A stretch of 64,000 nt of DNA from positions 930,001-994,000 of the forward strand of contig NZ_JASVWF010000001.1 of assembly GCF_030286555.1 (NCBI RefSeq). The letters are read 5' to 3'. A model generated the notes under the pieces. It saw nothing but the letters and a program-made list of their open reading frames with translations, was not told where the DNA came from and did no database searches. The position numbers and the translations under genes are program-made. The stretch is from Actinomycetospora termitidis. Its GTDB lineage: Bacteria > Actinomycetota > Actinomycetes > Mycobacteriales > Pseudonocardiaceae. Position 1 is the first letter of the stretch. Each line of letters begins with the position of its first letter. Shown here one piece after another: positions 44,529 to 52,299 of this stretch.

Positions 44529-44544
44529 GCCTAGGCTGGTACCC

Positions 44545-46185
44545 GTGCCCCGCCCCGTGATCCTCACCGTGGACGACGACCCGGGCGTCTCCCGTGCCGT
44601 GGCGCGCGACCTGCGCCGCGAGTACGGCGAGCACCACCGCATCGTGCGCGCCGACTCCGGCGAGGCCGCCCTGGAGGCGCTGCGCGAGATCGCGCTGCGC
44701 GGCGAGCAGGTCGCGGTGATGCTCGCCGACCAGCGGATGCCGCGGATGACCGGTGTCGAGTTCCTCGAGCGCGCCATGGACCTCTTCCCGCGCGCCCGCC
44801 GCGTCCTGCTCACCGCCTACGCCGACACCGAGGCCGCGATCACCGCGATCAACGTCGTCGACCTCGACCACTACCTGCTCAAGCCCTGGGACCCGCCCGA
44901 GGAGAAGCTCTACCCCGTCGTCGACCAGCTCCTCGAGGCCTGGCGCCGGGCGCCCGACCGGCCGAGCACCGACACCCGGGTCATCGGCCACCGGTGGTCC
45001 GCCCGGTCCTACGAGCTGCGCGACCTGCTCGCCCGCAACCAGGTGCCGTTCCGCTTCCACCTCGCCGACGACCCCGAGGGAGCGCGCCTGCTGGAGGCGG
45101 CCGGGTGCGACGTCGAGCGGCTGCCGGTCGTGATCACCGGCGACGGTCACGCCCTCGTGGAACCGACCGACGCCGAGGTCGCGGAGCGGGTCGGCCTCTC
45201 CACCCACGCCACGGCCGAGCTCTACGACCTCGCGGTGGTCGGCGGCGGCCCGGGCGGGCTCGGCGCGGCGGTCTACGGCGGCTCCGAGGGCCTGCGGACC
45301 GTGCTCGTGGAGTCGCTGGCCACCGGCGGACAGGCCGGCACCTCCAGCCGCATCGAGAACTACCTCGGCTTCCCCGACGGCGTCTCCGGCTCGCAGCTCA
45401 CCGACCGGGCCCGTCGTCAGGCGGTCAAGTTCGGGGTCGAGGTCCTGACGACGAGGACGGTCACCGGCCTCGGCGTCCGCGGCGGTGTCCGGGTGCTCAC
45501 GTTCGACGACGGGTCGGAGATCGCCGCCCACGCGGTGGTCCTGGCGACCGGGGTCTCGTACCGGACGCTGGACGTCCCCGGGCTCACGGAGTTCGCCGGC
45601 GAGGGCGTCTTCTACGGCGCGGCCACCACCGAGGCGCCCCTGTGCGCGCAGGAGGTGGTCTACGTCGTGGGCGGCGCGAACTCCGCCGGGCAGGCGGCGA
45701 TGAACTTCTCCCGCTACGCCAGCCGCGTCGTGATGCTGGTGCGGGGCGGGTCGCTCGAGGCGTCCATGTCGCACTACCTGATCGAGCAGATCGCCGGTGT
45801 GGAGCACATCGAGGTGCGCACCGGCACCGAGGTGGTCGGCGCCGAGGGCGACGGTCACCTGCAGAAGCTGACGCTGCGCGACCGCGGGAGCGGCACCGAG
45901 GAGGTCGTCGACGGGCAGTGGCTGTTCGTGTTCATCGGCGCGCAGCCGCGCACCGACTGGCTCGACGGCGTCGTCGCCCGCGACGACCGCGGATTCGTGC
46001 TCACCGGACCCGACCTGCCGTCGGGAAGCAACCCGGACCGGGAACCGTTGCACCTGGAGACCTCCCTGCCCGGGGTGTTCGCCGTCGGCGACGTCCGGGG
46101 CGGGTCGGTGAAGCGCGTGGCCTCCGCCGTCGGCGAGGGCGCGATGGCGGTGAGCCTGGTGCACCGCTGGTTGGAGAACCGATGA
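44545..46185 (+). CDS. receiver domain fused to thioredoxin-reductase-like flavoprotein
   Basis: A 546-residue fusion. Residues 1-130 are a CheY-like receiver with acidic D10-D12, phospho-acceptor D62 (VMLADQRMP), T90 and K113. Residues about 145-215 form a glutaredoxin-like linker without cysteine pair (GHRWSARSYELRDLLARNQV). Residues 226-546 are a thioredoxin-reductase-type oxidoreductase with GGGPGGLGAA near 233 (FAD), IENYLGFPDGVSG, GGANSAGQAA near 376 (NADPH) and VFAVGDVRGGSVKRVASAVGEG (FAD). The redox CATC motif is replaced by AATT (358-364), so it cannot reduce thioredoxin in the usual way. It is coupled to a histidine kinase gene by ATGA. Leaderless start after TAGGCT. Confidence 0.92.
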   Translation: MPRPVILTVDDDPGVSRAVARDLRREYGEHHRIVRADSGEAALEALREIALRGEQVAVMLADQRMPRMTGVEFLERAMDLFPRARRVLLTAYADTEAAITAINVVDLDHYLLKPWDPPEEKLYPVVDQLLEAWRRAPDRPSTDTRVIGHRWSARSYELRDLLARNQVPFRFHLADDPEGARLLEAAGCDVERLPVVITGDGHALVEPTDAEVAERVGLSTHATAELYDLAVVGGGPGGLGAAVYGGSEGLRTVLVESLATGGQAGTSSRIENYLGFPDGVSGSQLTDRARRQAVKFGVEVLTTRTVTGLGVRGGVRVLTFDDGSEIAAHAVVLATGVSYRTLDVPGLTEFAGEGVFYGAATTEAPLCAQEVVYVVGGANSAGQAAMNFSRYASRVVMLVRGGSLEASMSHYLIEQIAGVEHIEVRTGTEVVGAEGDGHLQKLTLRDRGSGTEEVVDGQWLFVFIGAQPRTDWLDGVVARDDRGFVLTGPDLPSGSNPDREPLHLETSLPGVFAVGDVRGGSVKRVASAVGEGAMAVSLVHRWLENR

Positions 46186-47594
46186 ACGACATCCGTGACG
46201 AGCTCGCCCCCGCCACCCTGCGGCGGCTCTTCCTCTTCGAGTCGCTGGACGACGACCAGCTCGCGTGGATCTCGGAGCACGCCGACGTCGTCGACGTGCC
46301 GTCGGGCGAGGACGTGTGCCGCGAGGGCGACCCCGCACGCTGCTTCTGGGTGCTCTGCGACGGCGAGATCTCGCTGATCCGGACCGTCCGGGGCGACGAG
46401 GTCGAGGTCAGCCGTTCCGACCGGCCCGGCACGTACGGCGGGGCCACCGAGGCCTACGTCGAGGGCGAGAACCTCCTCTACAAGCACACGCTGCGCGCCT
46501 GCACCGACTCCCGGTTCCTGGCGCTGCCGGCCGAGGAGTGGGGCGCGCAGCTGCGGACGTGGTTCCCGCTGGCGATGCACCTCGTGGAGGGCCTCGCCGT
46601 CGGGATGCGGCGCTCCAGCACCGCGATCGGCGAGCGGGAGCGGCTGCTGGCGCTGGGATCGCTCTCGGCGGGCCTCACCCACGAGCTGAACAACCCGGCC
46701 GCCGCCGCGATCCGGGCCACGGAGTCCCTGCGCGACCGGGTCGCGGGGATGCGGCACAAGCTCGCGATGCTCGCCTCCGGCAAGCTCGACGGCGCCGTCG
46801 TCTCCCAGCTCGTCGAGCTGCAGGAGGAGGCGGTGCTCGGCGTCGCGACCGCCCCGGAGCTCTCCGCGATGCAGGCCGCCGACGCCGAGGACGAGGTCGG
46901 CGACTGGCTGTCGGACCGCTCGGTCTCCGGGGCCTGGGACCTGGCCGCGGTGCTCGTCGCGGGCGGGCTGGACGCCGAGTGGCTCGGCAAGGTCGAGCGC
47001 ACGGTCCCCGACGGCACGCTCGAGGCGGCCGTGCGGTGGATCGCCTACGCCGTCGAGACCGAGACGCTGATGGGCGAGATCACCGACTCGACCGTCCGGA
47101 TCGGCACGCTGGTCAACGCCGCCCGCCAGTACTCCCAGCTCGACCGCGCCCCGTACCAGGCGAGCGACCTGCGGGTGCTGCTCAAGTCCACCGTCACGAT
47201 GCTCTCCCGCAAGCTCGAGGGCATCACGCTGGTGAAGGAGTTCGACCCCGACCTGCCGCAGGTGCCGTGCTACCCGGCGGAGCTGAACCAGGTCTGGACG
47301 AACATCATCGACAACGCGTGCTCGGCCATGGGCGGCGAGGGGACGCTGACGATCCGGACGCGGCGCGAGTCCGACACCGCGGTCGTCGAGATCGCCGACA
47401 CCGGCCCGGGGATCCCGGACGACGTGCGGCCGCGCATCTTCGAGCCGTTCTTCACGACGAAGGACGTCGGCGAGGGCACCGGGCTCGGCCTGGACATCTC
47501 GTGGCGGATCGTCGTCTCGAAGCACCACGGGGACATCCGCGTGCACACCTCGTCGGCGGGGACGACCTTCGAGATCCGGTTGCCTCTGGGGTGA
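46182..47594 (+). CDS. cNMP-binding-domain histidine kinase, partner of the REC-flavoprotein
   Basis: A 470-residue soluble kinase. Residues 12-130 form a cyclic-nucleotide-binding fold (FLFESLDDDQLAWISEHADV, GEDVCREGDPARCFWVLCDGE). The phospho-His H167 is in SLSAGLTHELNNPAAAA; a long helical insert follows; the ATPase domain has WTNIIDNACSAMGG, DTGPGIPDD, FEPFFTTKDVGEGTGLGLDI. There is no membrane segment. Its ATG overlaps the flavoprotein stop, so the two are made together and the kinase probably phosphorylates D62 of the fused receiver. Signal input may be nucleotide, redox state or flavoprotein contact (inference). Confidence 0.92.
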   Translation: MNDIRDELAPATLRRLFLFESLDDDQLAWISEHADVVDVPSGEDVCREGDPARCFWVLCDGEISLIRTVRGDEVEVSRSDRPGTYGGATEAYVEGENLLYKHTLRACTDSRFLALPAEEWGAQLRTWFPLAMHLVEGLAVGMRRSSTAIGERERLLALGSLSAGLTHELNNPAAAAIRATESLRDRVAGMRHKLAMLASGKLDGAVVSQLVELQEEAVLGVATAPELSAMQAADAEDEVGDWLSDRSVSGAWDLAAVLVAGGLDAEWLGKVERTVPDGTLEAAVRWIAYAVETETLMGEITDSTVRIGTLVNAARQYSQLDRAPYQASDLRVLLKSTVTMLSRKLEGITLVKEFDPDLPQVPCYPAELNQVWTNIIDNACSAMGGEGTLTIRTRRESDTAVVEIADTGPGIPDDVRPRIFEPFFTTKDVGEGTGLGLDISWRIVVSKHHGDIRVHTSSAGTTFEIRLPLG

Positions 47595-51222: not shown

Positions 51223-51289
51223 GTGGCTTCGCCTCGTGTGCACTTGTGGCGGCTATGACCGCCACAAGTGCTCACAGGGCGAAGCCACC
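51222..51289. terminator. 68-bp nested palindrome between DUF445 and crcB genes
   Basis: Two concentric perfect inverted repeats: outer GGTGGCTTCGCC/GGCGAAGCCACC and inner GCACTTGTGGCGG/CCGCCACAAGTGC, with 6-nt unpaired spacers on each side and a CTATGA loop. The outer right arm is the last coding sequence of crcB, and the outer left arm starts in the DUF445 stop, so the terminator has copied or captured coding sequence. Confidence 0.85.
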
Positions 51290-51631
51290 GATCGCGAGGC
51301 CCAGCGACGCGGCGCCGAGGCCCGCGAACGTCGACATCACGACGTTGAACAGCGAGTGCGCCCGCTCTCCGGCCTCGGCGAGGCGCACGGTCTCGTAGCC
51401 CAGGGTCGACCACGTGGAGAGCCCGCCGCAGTACCCGGTGCCCATGGCGGCGACCACGGCCGACGGCGCCGCTCCCCCCAGCACGATCCCGAGCACGAGC
51501 GAGGCCACGACGTTGACGGTGAACGTGCCCCACGGGAACGACGTGCCGTGGGTGCGCTGCAGGGCGCGGTCGACGAGGTAGCGGGTCGGCGCCCCGAGCG
51601 CGGCGCCGAGCGCCACCCAGAGCCCCGTCAC
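51272..51631 (-). CDS. crcB: CrcB/Fluc fluoride channel subunit
   Basis: A 119-residue four-helix protein of the fluoride exporter family: VALGAALGAPTRYLVDRALQR at the start, GTFTVNVVASLVLGIVLGG near 38 and GYCGGLSTWSTLGYETVRLAE near 67, where the conserved Asn, Thr and Ser/Thr line the pore. It exports fluoride from the cytoplasm. The GTG overlaps the upstream crcB stop (GTGA); two adjacent genes usually encode the two halves of a heterodimer. Confidence 0.92.
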   Translation of the reverse strand: MTGLWVALGAALGAPTRYLVDRALQRTHGTSFPWGTFTVNVVASLVLGIVLGGAAPSAVVAAMGTGYCGGLSTWSTLGYETVRLAEAGERAHSLFNVVMSTFAGLGAASLGLAIGGFAL

Positions 51632-52086
51632 CGCGCACCCCCCGTCGTGCGGCCCAGGACGAGGCCGAGCCAGGCGGCGCCGACCGACCCGGCCACCGTC
51701 GCCGCGAGGTAGCCCAGCGCGGTGCCGAGCCGGCCGCCGGCGAGGAGGTGCTGGGCGTCGACGGCGAAGGTCGAGAAGGTCGTGAACCCGCCGAGGACAC
51801 CCACACCGAGGAACGGCCGCACGAGCGGGTGCGCGGTGCGGACCTCGGCCACGTGCACGACGAGGAACCCCATGAGCAGGCAGCCGACGACGTTGATGAC
51901 CACGGTCGTCGTCGGGAACCCGCCCGGCGGTGTGGGCCACGCGAGGCCCAGGCCCCAGCGGGCGAGCGCGCCGAGCGCGCCGCCGAGGGCCACGGCTGCG
52001 ACGGCAGCCCCCTGGCCACGCAGGACGGACCCGCCGGGTTCACGCCCGGCGACGACGTCGTCGGAGATCTCGGGACGCTCGGGCAC
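51628..52086 (-). CDS. crcB: CrcB/Fluc fluoride channel subunit with N-terminal extension
   Basis: A 152-residue CrcB protein. About 35 extra hydrophilic residues (VPERPEISDDVVAG onward) precede the channel: GGALGALARWGLGLAWP, TTTVVINVVGCLLMGFLVVH near 68 and GGFTTFSTFAVDAQHLL near 105. It probably pairs with the second subunit encoded immediately downstream. GTG start with AGGGAG. No fluoride riboswitch sequence was recognised in the 240 bp upstream. Confidence 0.9.
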   Translation of the reverse strand: MPERPEISDDVVAGREPGGSVLRGQGAAVAAVALGGALGALARWGLGLAWPTPPGGFPTTTVVINVVGCLLMGFLVVHVAEVRTAHPLVRPFLGVGVLGGFTTFSTFAVDAQHLLAGGRLGTALGYLAATVAGSVGAAWLGLVLGRTTGGAR

Positions 52087-52265
52087 GAAGGCTCCCTGGG
52101 CACGCGGAATCGGGCTCCAGGGACCGTTGGCGCCGGCATGACGCAGTTGTCGGCGGGCCCCACCGCCATCGCCGCAGACGCTAGCCGAGGCGTTTCCCCA
52201 GCGCACGACGCCGTCCGGAAACGATCTCCAGAACTGTGGCACAGCCCACCCCACCTGCGCAAACA

Positions 52266-52299
52266 GAGTGCTTGCACCAGCTAGCACTCGTGTTAGCGT
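52266..52299 (+). promoter_or_regulatory. promoter and inverted repeat upstream of the XRE gene
   Basis: GAGTGCT (52266) and AGCACTC (52283) form a perfect inverted repeat with a 10-nt spacer; TTGCAC (52273-52278) and TAGCGT (52294-52299), 15 nt apart, look like -35 and -10 elements overlapping it. Binding by the XRE product would autoregulate the gene. Confidence 0.55.

What the first reader, a model, noticed from the sequence alone, without database searches (positions are those of the whole stretch)
44545..47594. Coupled signalling pair: receiver-flavoprotein lacking CxxC plus cNMP-binding histidine kinase
Seen: a receiver domain with intact D62/T90/K113 fused through a glutaredoxin-like linker to a complete thioredoxin-reductase fold whose redox CATC is replaced by AATT; its stop overlaps (ATGA) the start of a soluble kinase with a cNMP-type N-terminal domain and intact H167. 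Known: response regulators usually carry DNA-binding or enzymatic outputs, and TrxR proteins without CxxC cannot reduce thioredoxin. Inference: NAD(P)H/FAD redox chemistry could be the regulated output, or the flavin state could be sensed by the kinase through its partner. No transcription factor is present, so this may be an unusual redox-output two-component system.
Basis: partly seen in the sequence, partly recalled or inferred. Interest (0 to 1): 0.8.

Follow-up and report, generated by a model that had tools for sequence, protein, structure and literature searches.

The report
Kinase-switched flavoprotein with disarmed thiols
Two overlapping genes encode a sensor kinase and its partner, a receiver fused to a thioredoxin-reductase-like flavoprotein that has lost its catalytic cysteine pairs; the pair occurs in several bacterial phyla and is already listed in surveys, but its output is unknown and it has been treated as an ordinary thioredoxin reductase.

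Summary
44545-46185 encodes REC + glutaredoxin/mycoredoxin-like domain + thioredoxin-reductase (TrxR)-fold flavoprotein; 46182-47594 encodes a soluble cNMP-fold histidine kinase; they overlap at ATGA. It is not unique. REC-TrxR proteins are a named response-regulator class ("TrxB"), and a Streptomyces coelicolor RR-HK pair of that class (SCO7298/SCO7297) is in print. In 80 named actinobacterial loci the kinase follows within 200 nt in 79. In 56 hand-picked phylum loci, all 26 with an intact receiver site (DDDTK) have a kinase of this family adjacent, and none of the 30 others does; on a tree this is mostly one old split. Both thiol relays are gone: no Cys at the TrxR CxxC in 80/80 and 56/56 (AATT itself is rare; consensus [SA]AxTE), and the mycoredoxin CxxC is mostly SxxS. 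A lone Cys (C367) is invariant in the near clade only. NADPH 2'-phosphate and recalled cNMP-phosphate residues are mostly missing. The kinase has a helical insert in its dimerization domain. A UBP-type zinc-finger gene follows in 38/80. Best reading: a true two-component pair whose receiver gates a flavoprotein that is not a thioredoxin reductase. The chemistry is unproven; flavin redox output is likeliest, a sensor or pseudoenzyme role possible.

The parts
44532..44537 (+). TAGGCT, -10-like hexamer 7 nt before the GTG start (possible leaderless start)
   Evidence: present in window; similar in 11 of 74 relatives, control 23 of 4000 random ATG/GTG sites
44545..46185 (+). CDS of REC-mycoredoxin-like-TrxR-like flavoprotein, 546 aa, GTG start
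   Evidence: homologs
44560..44898 (+). receiver domain (residues 6-118) with D62 (44728-44730), T90 (44812-44814), K113 (44881-44883)
   Evidence: Pfam PF00072 1.5e-13; residues 80/80
44977..45189 (+). glutaredoxin/mycoredoxin-like domain (residues 145-215) without active-site cysteines
   Evidence: profile hit to Rv3198.1; Nostoc relative passes Pfam glutaredoxin cut-off; predicted fold
44998..45009 (+). S152-A-R-S155 in place of the glutaredoxin CxxC
45220..46179 (+). TrxR-like flavoprotein domain (residues 226-545)
45619..45630 (+). A359-A-T-T362 in place of the TrxR redox CxxC
45643..45645 (+). lone Cys 367, five residues after the lost second Cys
   Evidence: 80/80 in near clade; 18 of 26 paired and 1 of 30 unpaired rows in the phylum set
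46182..46185 (+). ATGA stop/start overlap of the two genes
   Evidence: NTGA overlap with open frame into the kinase in 54 of 80 relatives
46182..47594 (+). CDS of soluble cNMP-fold histidine kinase, 470 aa
46227..46562 (+). cNMP-fold sensor domain (residues 16-127)
   Evidence: Pfam PF00027 1.9e-9; model
46680..46682 (+). H167, expected phospho-accepting histidine in AGLTHELNNP
   Evidence: 80/80
46776..47018 (+). about 80-residue helical insert between the two dimerization (DHp) helices (residues 199-279)
   Evidence: model; no Pfam hit in the stretch
47019..47144 (+). second DHp helix (residues 280-321)
   Evidence: model
47277..47588 (+). HATPase_c catalytic domain (residues 366-469)
   Evidence: Pfam PF02518 6.5e-25

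Best explanation
A genuine two-component pair of the TrxB class. The kinase autophosphorylates on H167 in response to a signal read by its cNMP-fold domain (probably not a classical cyclic nucleotide) and passes the phosphoryl group to D62. Phosphorylation shifts how the receiver packs on the flavoprotein and so gates it. The flavoprotein is built like AhpF (thiol-relay domain plus TrxR core), but both dithiols are gone, so it cannot reduce thioredoxin or a glutaredoxin partner by the usual route. It most likely moves electrons between a pyridine nucleotide or other donor, FAD and a non-thioredoxin acceptor, or uses the flavin redox state to signal to a partner such as the UBP-type zinc-finger protein encoded third in many operons. 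Shown by sequence: the pair, the intact phospho-sites, the lost cysteines, the kept folds. Inferred: phosphotransfer, gating, direction of signal, FAD occupancy and chemistry.
Against: No biochemical evidence here. The receiver-kinase association needs one or two changes on the tree, not many independent events. HRRDxxRA is VRGxSLEA-like and GGGxxAxE is GGANSAGQ, so NADPH use is doubtful. Some kinases of the family stand without a flavoprotein (L197, L199), and L034 has an intact receiver without an adjacent kinase (a relative lies on the same contig about 20 kb off). L035 is served by a PAS kinase upstream and Nostoc edaphicum has a receiver-kinase 2.6 kb off, so no one sensor is essential.
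Confidence: 0.5

Rival explanations
1. The flavoprotein is the sensor: FAD redox state (NAD(P)H/NAD(P)+ ratio or an oxidant) sets whether the receiver can be phosphorylated or acts as a phosphate sink, and the kinase answers to another partner.
For: No DNA-binding or known effector domain in the pair; some loci carry one flavoprotein between two kinases (Caballeronia L200, Paraburkholderia L057) or before two or three kinases in tandem (coordinates), as a shared hub would.
Against: The one-gene variant puts a cNMP sensor straight on the flavoprotein, which fits poorly with a flavoprotein that only informs a kinase.
Confidence: 0.17
2. Pseudoenzyme: the TrxR fold no longer does redox chemistry and serves as a nucleotide-binding scaffold or protein-binding switch.
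For: Both dithiols lost and the 2'-phosphate and GGGxxAxE motifs altered.
Against: FAD-site glycines and GD motif 80/80 and a nearly invariant GGANSAGQ pattern (one position 77/80, the rest 80/80) point to kept ligand binding.
Confidence: 0.2
3. Single-cysteine disulfide or persulfide reductase: C367 next to the old active site works with the flavin on small thiols or sulfane sulfur.
For: C367 80/80 in the near clade; 11 of 12 intact-receiver rows, 0 of 10 decayed-receiver rows and 2 of 2 cNMP rows of the hand-picked A1; 18 of 26 against 1 of 30 in the phylum set; SCO7298, the S. coelicolor protein of this class, is induced by polysulfide (PMC9952706, passages).
Against: C367 is V, H, F, Y or M in 8 of 26 deeper paired rows and V in Deinococcus; distance to the flavin not measured.
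Confidence: 0.1
4. An ordinary thioredoxin reductase with an extra receiver, as annotation and two expression studies assume.
For: The one-gene variant is annotated thioredoxin-disulfide reductase; SCO7298 is called trxB3 (PMC9952706) and putative thioredoxin reductase (PMC2631018).
Against: No CxxC in 80/80 and 56/56; 207 bits against a cut-off of 343 for TIGR01292; the genome has a separate CATC protein.
Confidence: 0.03

Closest known systems
TrxB-class response regulators (REC-TrxR); S. coelicolor SCO7298 with kinase SCO7297
   Same: Receiver fused to a TrxR-type domain, gene order RR-HK (PMC9739842, table row seen); class also listed for Myxococcaceae (PMC7694542) and thermophilic cyanobacteria (PMC9953108), and as a Mycobacterium-like combination in archaea (PMC5847659)
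   Different: No functional account found; the passages seen do not mention loss of both dithiols, C367, the helical insert of the kinase or the zinc-finger third gene. The sequence of SCO7298 itself was not compared here
cyclic nucleotide-binding domain-containing thioredoxin-disulfide reductase (annotation name)
   Same: Same CxxC-less mycoredoxin-TrxR body; the two examined (L042, L044) are 49-50% identical over it
   Different: cNMP domain in place of the receiver
AhpF
   Same: Thiol-relay domain plus TrxR core; first by E-value in Foldseek
   Different: Arrangement not matched (TM 0.38, rmsd 17 over the whole); AhpF keeps redox cysteines (recalled), here none, and a receiver is added
TrxR-like ferredoxin/flavodoxin-NADP reductases (FNR1, 6gar)
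   Different: By recall no receiver or glutaredoxin-like domain; fits less well than true TrxRs
Mycoredoxin-like Rv3198.1 (2lqo)
   Same: Best profile hit of the middle domain
   Different: Its cysteines fall on SxxS here

Membership tests
Thioredoxin reductase (TIGR01292) | Redox-active CxxC | tested here: not met
   AATT in the window; 0/80 and 0/56 relatives with Cys at either position
Thioredoxin reductase (TIGR01292) | Curated model score | tested here: not met
   207.1 bits, cut-off 343.45
Thioredoxin reductase (TIGR01292) | NADPH motifs GGGxxAxE and VxxxHRRDxxRA (as given in PMC5627308) | tested here: not met
   GGANSAGQ and VRGxSLEA-like; one Arg (R400) kept 80/80
Thioredoxin reductase fold | Overall fold | tested here: met
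Response regulator, TrxB class | Receiver with phospho-acceptor site joined to TrxR-type domain | tested here: met
Two-component pair | Kinase adjacent and co-conserved | tested here: met
   79/80; 26/26 versus 0/30
Two-component pair | Phosphotransfer H167 to D62 | not testable with these tools
   needs purified proteins
HisKA-type histidine kinase | H-box, DHp hairpin and HATPase domain | tested here: inconclusive
   H167 80/80 and HATPase_c hit; no HisKA Pfam hit in the window protein, sub-threshold hits to the first half of HisKA in two cyanobacterial relatives, helical insert between the DHp helices in the model
Glutaredoxin/mycoredoxin | Catalytic cysteine | tested here: not met
   SxxS in the window; no Cys at 151-155 in 56/56; Cys at 155 in 3 of 80 and in Nostoc sp. 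C052
cNMP-binding domain | Glu and Arg that bind the cyclic phosphate (residue roles recalled) | tested here: not met
   G87 kept 80/80, the next residue is Ala 77 or Ser 3 of 80 where Glu is expected; Tyr 79 of 80 at the Arg column by my own reading of the alignment

The most novel reading that the evidence does not exclude
A widespread two-component family whose direct output is flavin redox chemistry carried by an AhpF-like scaffold with both thiol relays disarmed, switched by receiver phosphorylation and read by a UBP-type zinc-finger partner: a phospho-to-flavin signalling route with no transcription factor.
Probability: 0.3. Interest if true: 0.8.

Novelty: new member of a known kind. 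Interest (0 to 1): 0.45.

Why it matters
The class is in at least four bacterial phyla here and is counted in published censuses, yet two expression studies take the S. coelicolor member for a thioredoxin reductase. Showing that the catalytic cysteines are gone, while the phospho-acceptor site and kinase persist, says that name is probably wrong and makes an enzyme-output two-component system testable in a standard laboratory streptomycete.

Tried and rejected
Plain TrxR function: rejected on CxxC loss. AATT as a conserved motif: rejected, 3 of 80. C367 as a universal catalytic residue: weakened by deeper rows. A conserved neighbour other than the zinc finger: Pfam scans of 54 of the 79 upstream genes and 60 of the 139 downstream genes that my ORF caller named (the zinc-finger genes left out on purpose) gave no family above 5 of 54 (Usp) or 10 of 60 (AAA_16). 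Receiver-kinase association as many independent events: the tree allows one or two. The pseudo-receiver review PMC12632262 was searched for thioredoxin, Pyr_redox, oxidoreductase and TrxB: no occurrence. PMC8945050 and PMC3164672 gave nothing on this class in the passages shown. Ten literature searches gave no functional account that I recognised from titles, abstract starts and the passages opened; not every listed paper was opened, and the library lacks most subscription journals. The VIA rows cover model residues 223-546 and 151-470; receiver, linker and cNMP domain are barely tested there.

Limits of the samples: the 80 loci are the best 80 of 580 candidates and all close. The 125 rows typed into one search are those I took's cut listing as covering the receiver; some cover it only in part and G161 not at all. 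Its 40 phylum rows are the top's list and include 7 of the order. The 56 loci are hand-picked; full-length rows left out include G222, G387, G355, G323, G227:C693, G480:C107, G470:C19 and G389:C1:2688202 (one stop inside), besides rows of the same order and partial rows. Kinases were sought with the window kinase at 1e-5, so an unlike kinase would be missed. A3 and A4 used 43 and 42 of the 80 loci.
Full report
What is there. The two ORFs, their coordinates and the ATGA overlap are as described. The first protein (546 aa) has a receiver (Pfam 6-118) and a TrxR-like domain (227-532); the second (470 aa) has a cNMP-fold domain and a HATPase_c domain. The nearest named relative is Actinomycetospora soli, 93% identical for the flavoprotein and 92% for the kinase, so the window is probably an Actinomycetospora. 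In both the next gene is an asparagine synthase.

The middle domain. Its profile finds mycoredoxin-like Rv3198.1 (E 7e-4), then weak glutaredoxin, thioredoxin, glutathione-transferase and unrelated hits. Pfam glutaredoxin is hit by 3 of 18 members at best 0.03, and not by the window protein, but a Nostoc sp. C052 relative passes the curated cut-off. The model shows the glutaredoxin order of strands and helices. In the alignment to Rv3198.1 the two cysteines of its WCxxC fall on S152 and S155. In 80 relatives S152 is Ser in 76 and S155 is Ser in 76, with Cys at 155 in 3; in 56 wider relatives no Cys lies at 151-155, and Ser stands at 152 in 42 and at 155 in 34; Nostoc sp. C052 has Cys at 155.

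The TrxR domain. No relative examined has Cys at either CxxC position: 0 of 80, 0 of 56, none of the 24 family rows of A1, whose only CATC is the genome's own TrxR used as outgroup, and none of 8 further rows (two of them already in the other sets or their near kin). AATT occurs in 3 of 80; the consensus is [SA]AxTE. FAD-site residues G233, G235, G238 and G515-D516 are 80/80. The NADPH motifs named in PMC5627308 (passages seen) are changed: GGANSAGQ in place of GGGxxAxE, and VRGxSLEA-like in place of HRRDxxRA. A lone cysteine, C367, is 80/80 in the near clade, but 18 of 26 in deeper paired rows, 1 of 30 in the others, and lost in Deinococcus. The model (mean pLDDT 80.1, pTM 0.67; low at 98-105, 137-141, 259-281, 521-527) fits TrxRs in the FR arrangement (5mh4, rmsd 2.3; 1f6m, FR by recall, 2.7) better than FO ones (5mjk, 8.1). 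Foldseek ranks whole AhpF first by E-value, though with TM 0.38 and rmsd 17 the domain arrangement is not matched.

The kinase. H167 is 80/80 in the motif AGLTHELNNP, with small changes at two places. The model (mean pLDDT 79.3, pTM 0.39) has a cNMP barrel at about 16-127, a long helix holding H167, four short helices at 204-274, then the second DHp helix at 280-321. The insert has no Pfam hit, carries residues invariant in 43 rows (D234, E236), and is spanned by matches in Deinococcus, Nostoc and Paraburkholderia kinases. Two cyanobacterial kinases give sub-threshold Pfam HisKA hits to the first half of the model only, as an interrupted hairpin would. The cNMP domain's nearest solved matches are DNR and cyclic-nucleotide kinases, but the residues I recall as binding the cyclic phosphate are missing.

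The pair. Of 80 named loci 79 have the kinase within 200 nt downstream; in L099 about 1.3 kb lies between; 54 of 80 have an NTGA overlap in frame. Of 125 rows I took from the order search, 101 have a listed kinase downstream on the same strand, one has it upstream and 23 have none listed; of the 40 top phylum rows, 37, one and two. In 56 phylum loci, 26 have the full receiver set DDDTK and all 26 have the kinase adjacent, one upstream (L164) and one cut by a contig end; of 30 others none has one of this family. On a quick tree of 81 rows built without the receiver and rooted on a long branch, paired rows fall in one 40-row set (SH-aLRT 100) that also holds the two cNMP-TrxRs and one unpaired row (L034); kinase adjacency needs 2 changes and the receiver set 1, and only one or two independent pairs exist, so the association is old and long kept rather than often repeated. 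Outside Actinomycetota, Deinococcus, two Nostoc, Gloeothece, Caballeronia and Paraburkholderia proteins keep DDDTK and lack CxxC; all but Nostoc edaphicum have a kinase of the family adjacent.

Variants. One-gene proteins put a cNMP domain on the same body (L042, L044). The kinase's cNMP profile, searched in 10 genomes, hits the N-termini of such proteins in six (6e-9 to 1e-3), in five of them above any frame of CRP-like size (judged by frame length only); it does not hit those of G022 and G102, and some other frames score as well, such as G090:C12. L035 has a PAS kinase upstream. Caballeronia and Paraburkholderia have kinase-flavoprotein-kinase. Kinases without a flavoprotein occur. A UBP-type zinc-finger gene follows the kinase in 38 of 80 loci (Pfam PF02148 tested on the Streptomyces copy), as in S. 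fungicidicus; the window lacks it there, but its genome has two elsewhere.

What is known. REC-TrxR is listed as a response-regulator class in PMC9739842, PMC7694542 and PMC9953108 and mentioned in PMC5847659 (passages seen). PMC9739842 lists SCO7298 (TrxB) with kinase SCO7297 as an RR-HK pair. SCO7298 transcript rises with polysulfide, also without AdpA but less (PMC9952706, passages), and with acid shock (PMC2631018, passages); both treat it as a thioredoxin reductase. I did not compare the SCO7298 sequence; that it lacks CxxC is inferred from its class and from Streptomyces relatives, among them S. violaceoruber (L107). I found no functional account (ten searches, listed under Tried and rejected).

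How it most likely works. The kept phospho-sites and kinase argue for real phosphotransfer. Because a sensor of the same type can sit directly on the flavoprotein, the flavoprotein is more likely effector than sensor. With both dithiols gone its product should not be reduced thioredoxin. A phospho-gated flavin oxidoreductase with another acceptor, or a flavin-state signal to a partner, fits best; a pseudoenzyme is the main alternative. No step of the chemistry is shown.

Verdict. Real, conserved, and of a known but uncharacterized class; interest moderate.

Noticed in passing
L056:9107-9460 and 38 of the 80 loci: A UBP-type zinc-finger gene follows the kinase as a third gene; absent at this place in the window, two copies elsewhere in its genome.
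   Followed up: partly
46776-47018: Helical insert of about 80 residues between the two DHp helices of the kinase, spanned by matches in several phyla and without a Pfam hit.
   Followed up: partly
L036-L041, L043, L045, L046, L052, L166-L195: Orphan paralogs: same flavoprotein body, decayed receiver, no adjacent kinase of the family; a set of pseudo-receiver flavoproteins.
   Followed up: partly
44532-44537: TAGGCT 7 nt before GTG suggests a leaderless transcript; similar in 11 of 74 relatives.
   Followed up: partly
L053, L054, L196, L198: Low temperature requirement protein A lies near the pair in Deinococcus and two Nostoc; GlgX and an AGE-family epimerase lie upstream in Nostoc and Gloeothece.
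   Followed up: no
L197:5028-11407: A kinase of this family without a flavoprotein lies about 4 kb from two adenylate/guanylate cyclase genes on a Mycolicibacterium arabiense plasmid.
   Followed up: no
G389, G420, G325, G429, G440: Two or three kinases of the family stand in tandem after one flavoprotein.
   Followed up: no
51275-52287: Two minus-strand ORFs in tandem each match CrcB (PF02537), a small membrane-protein family.
   Followed up: no
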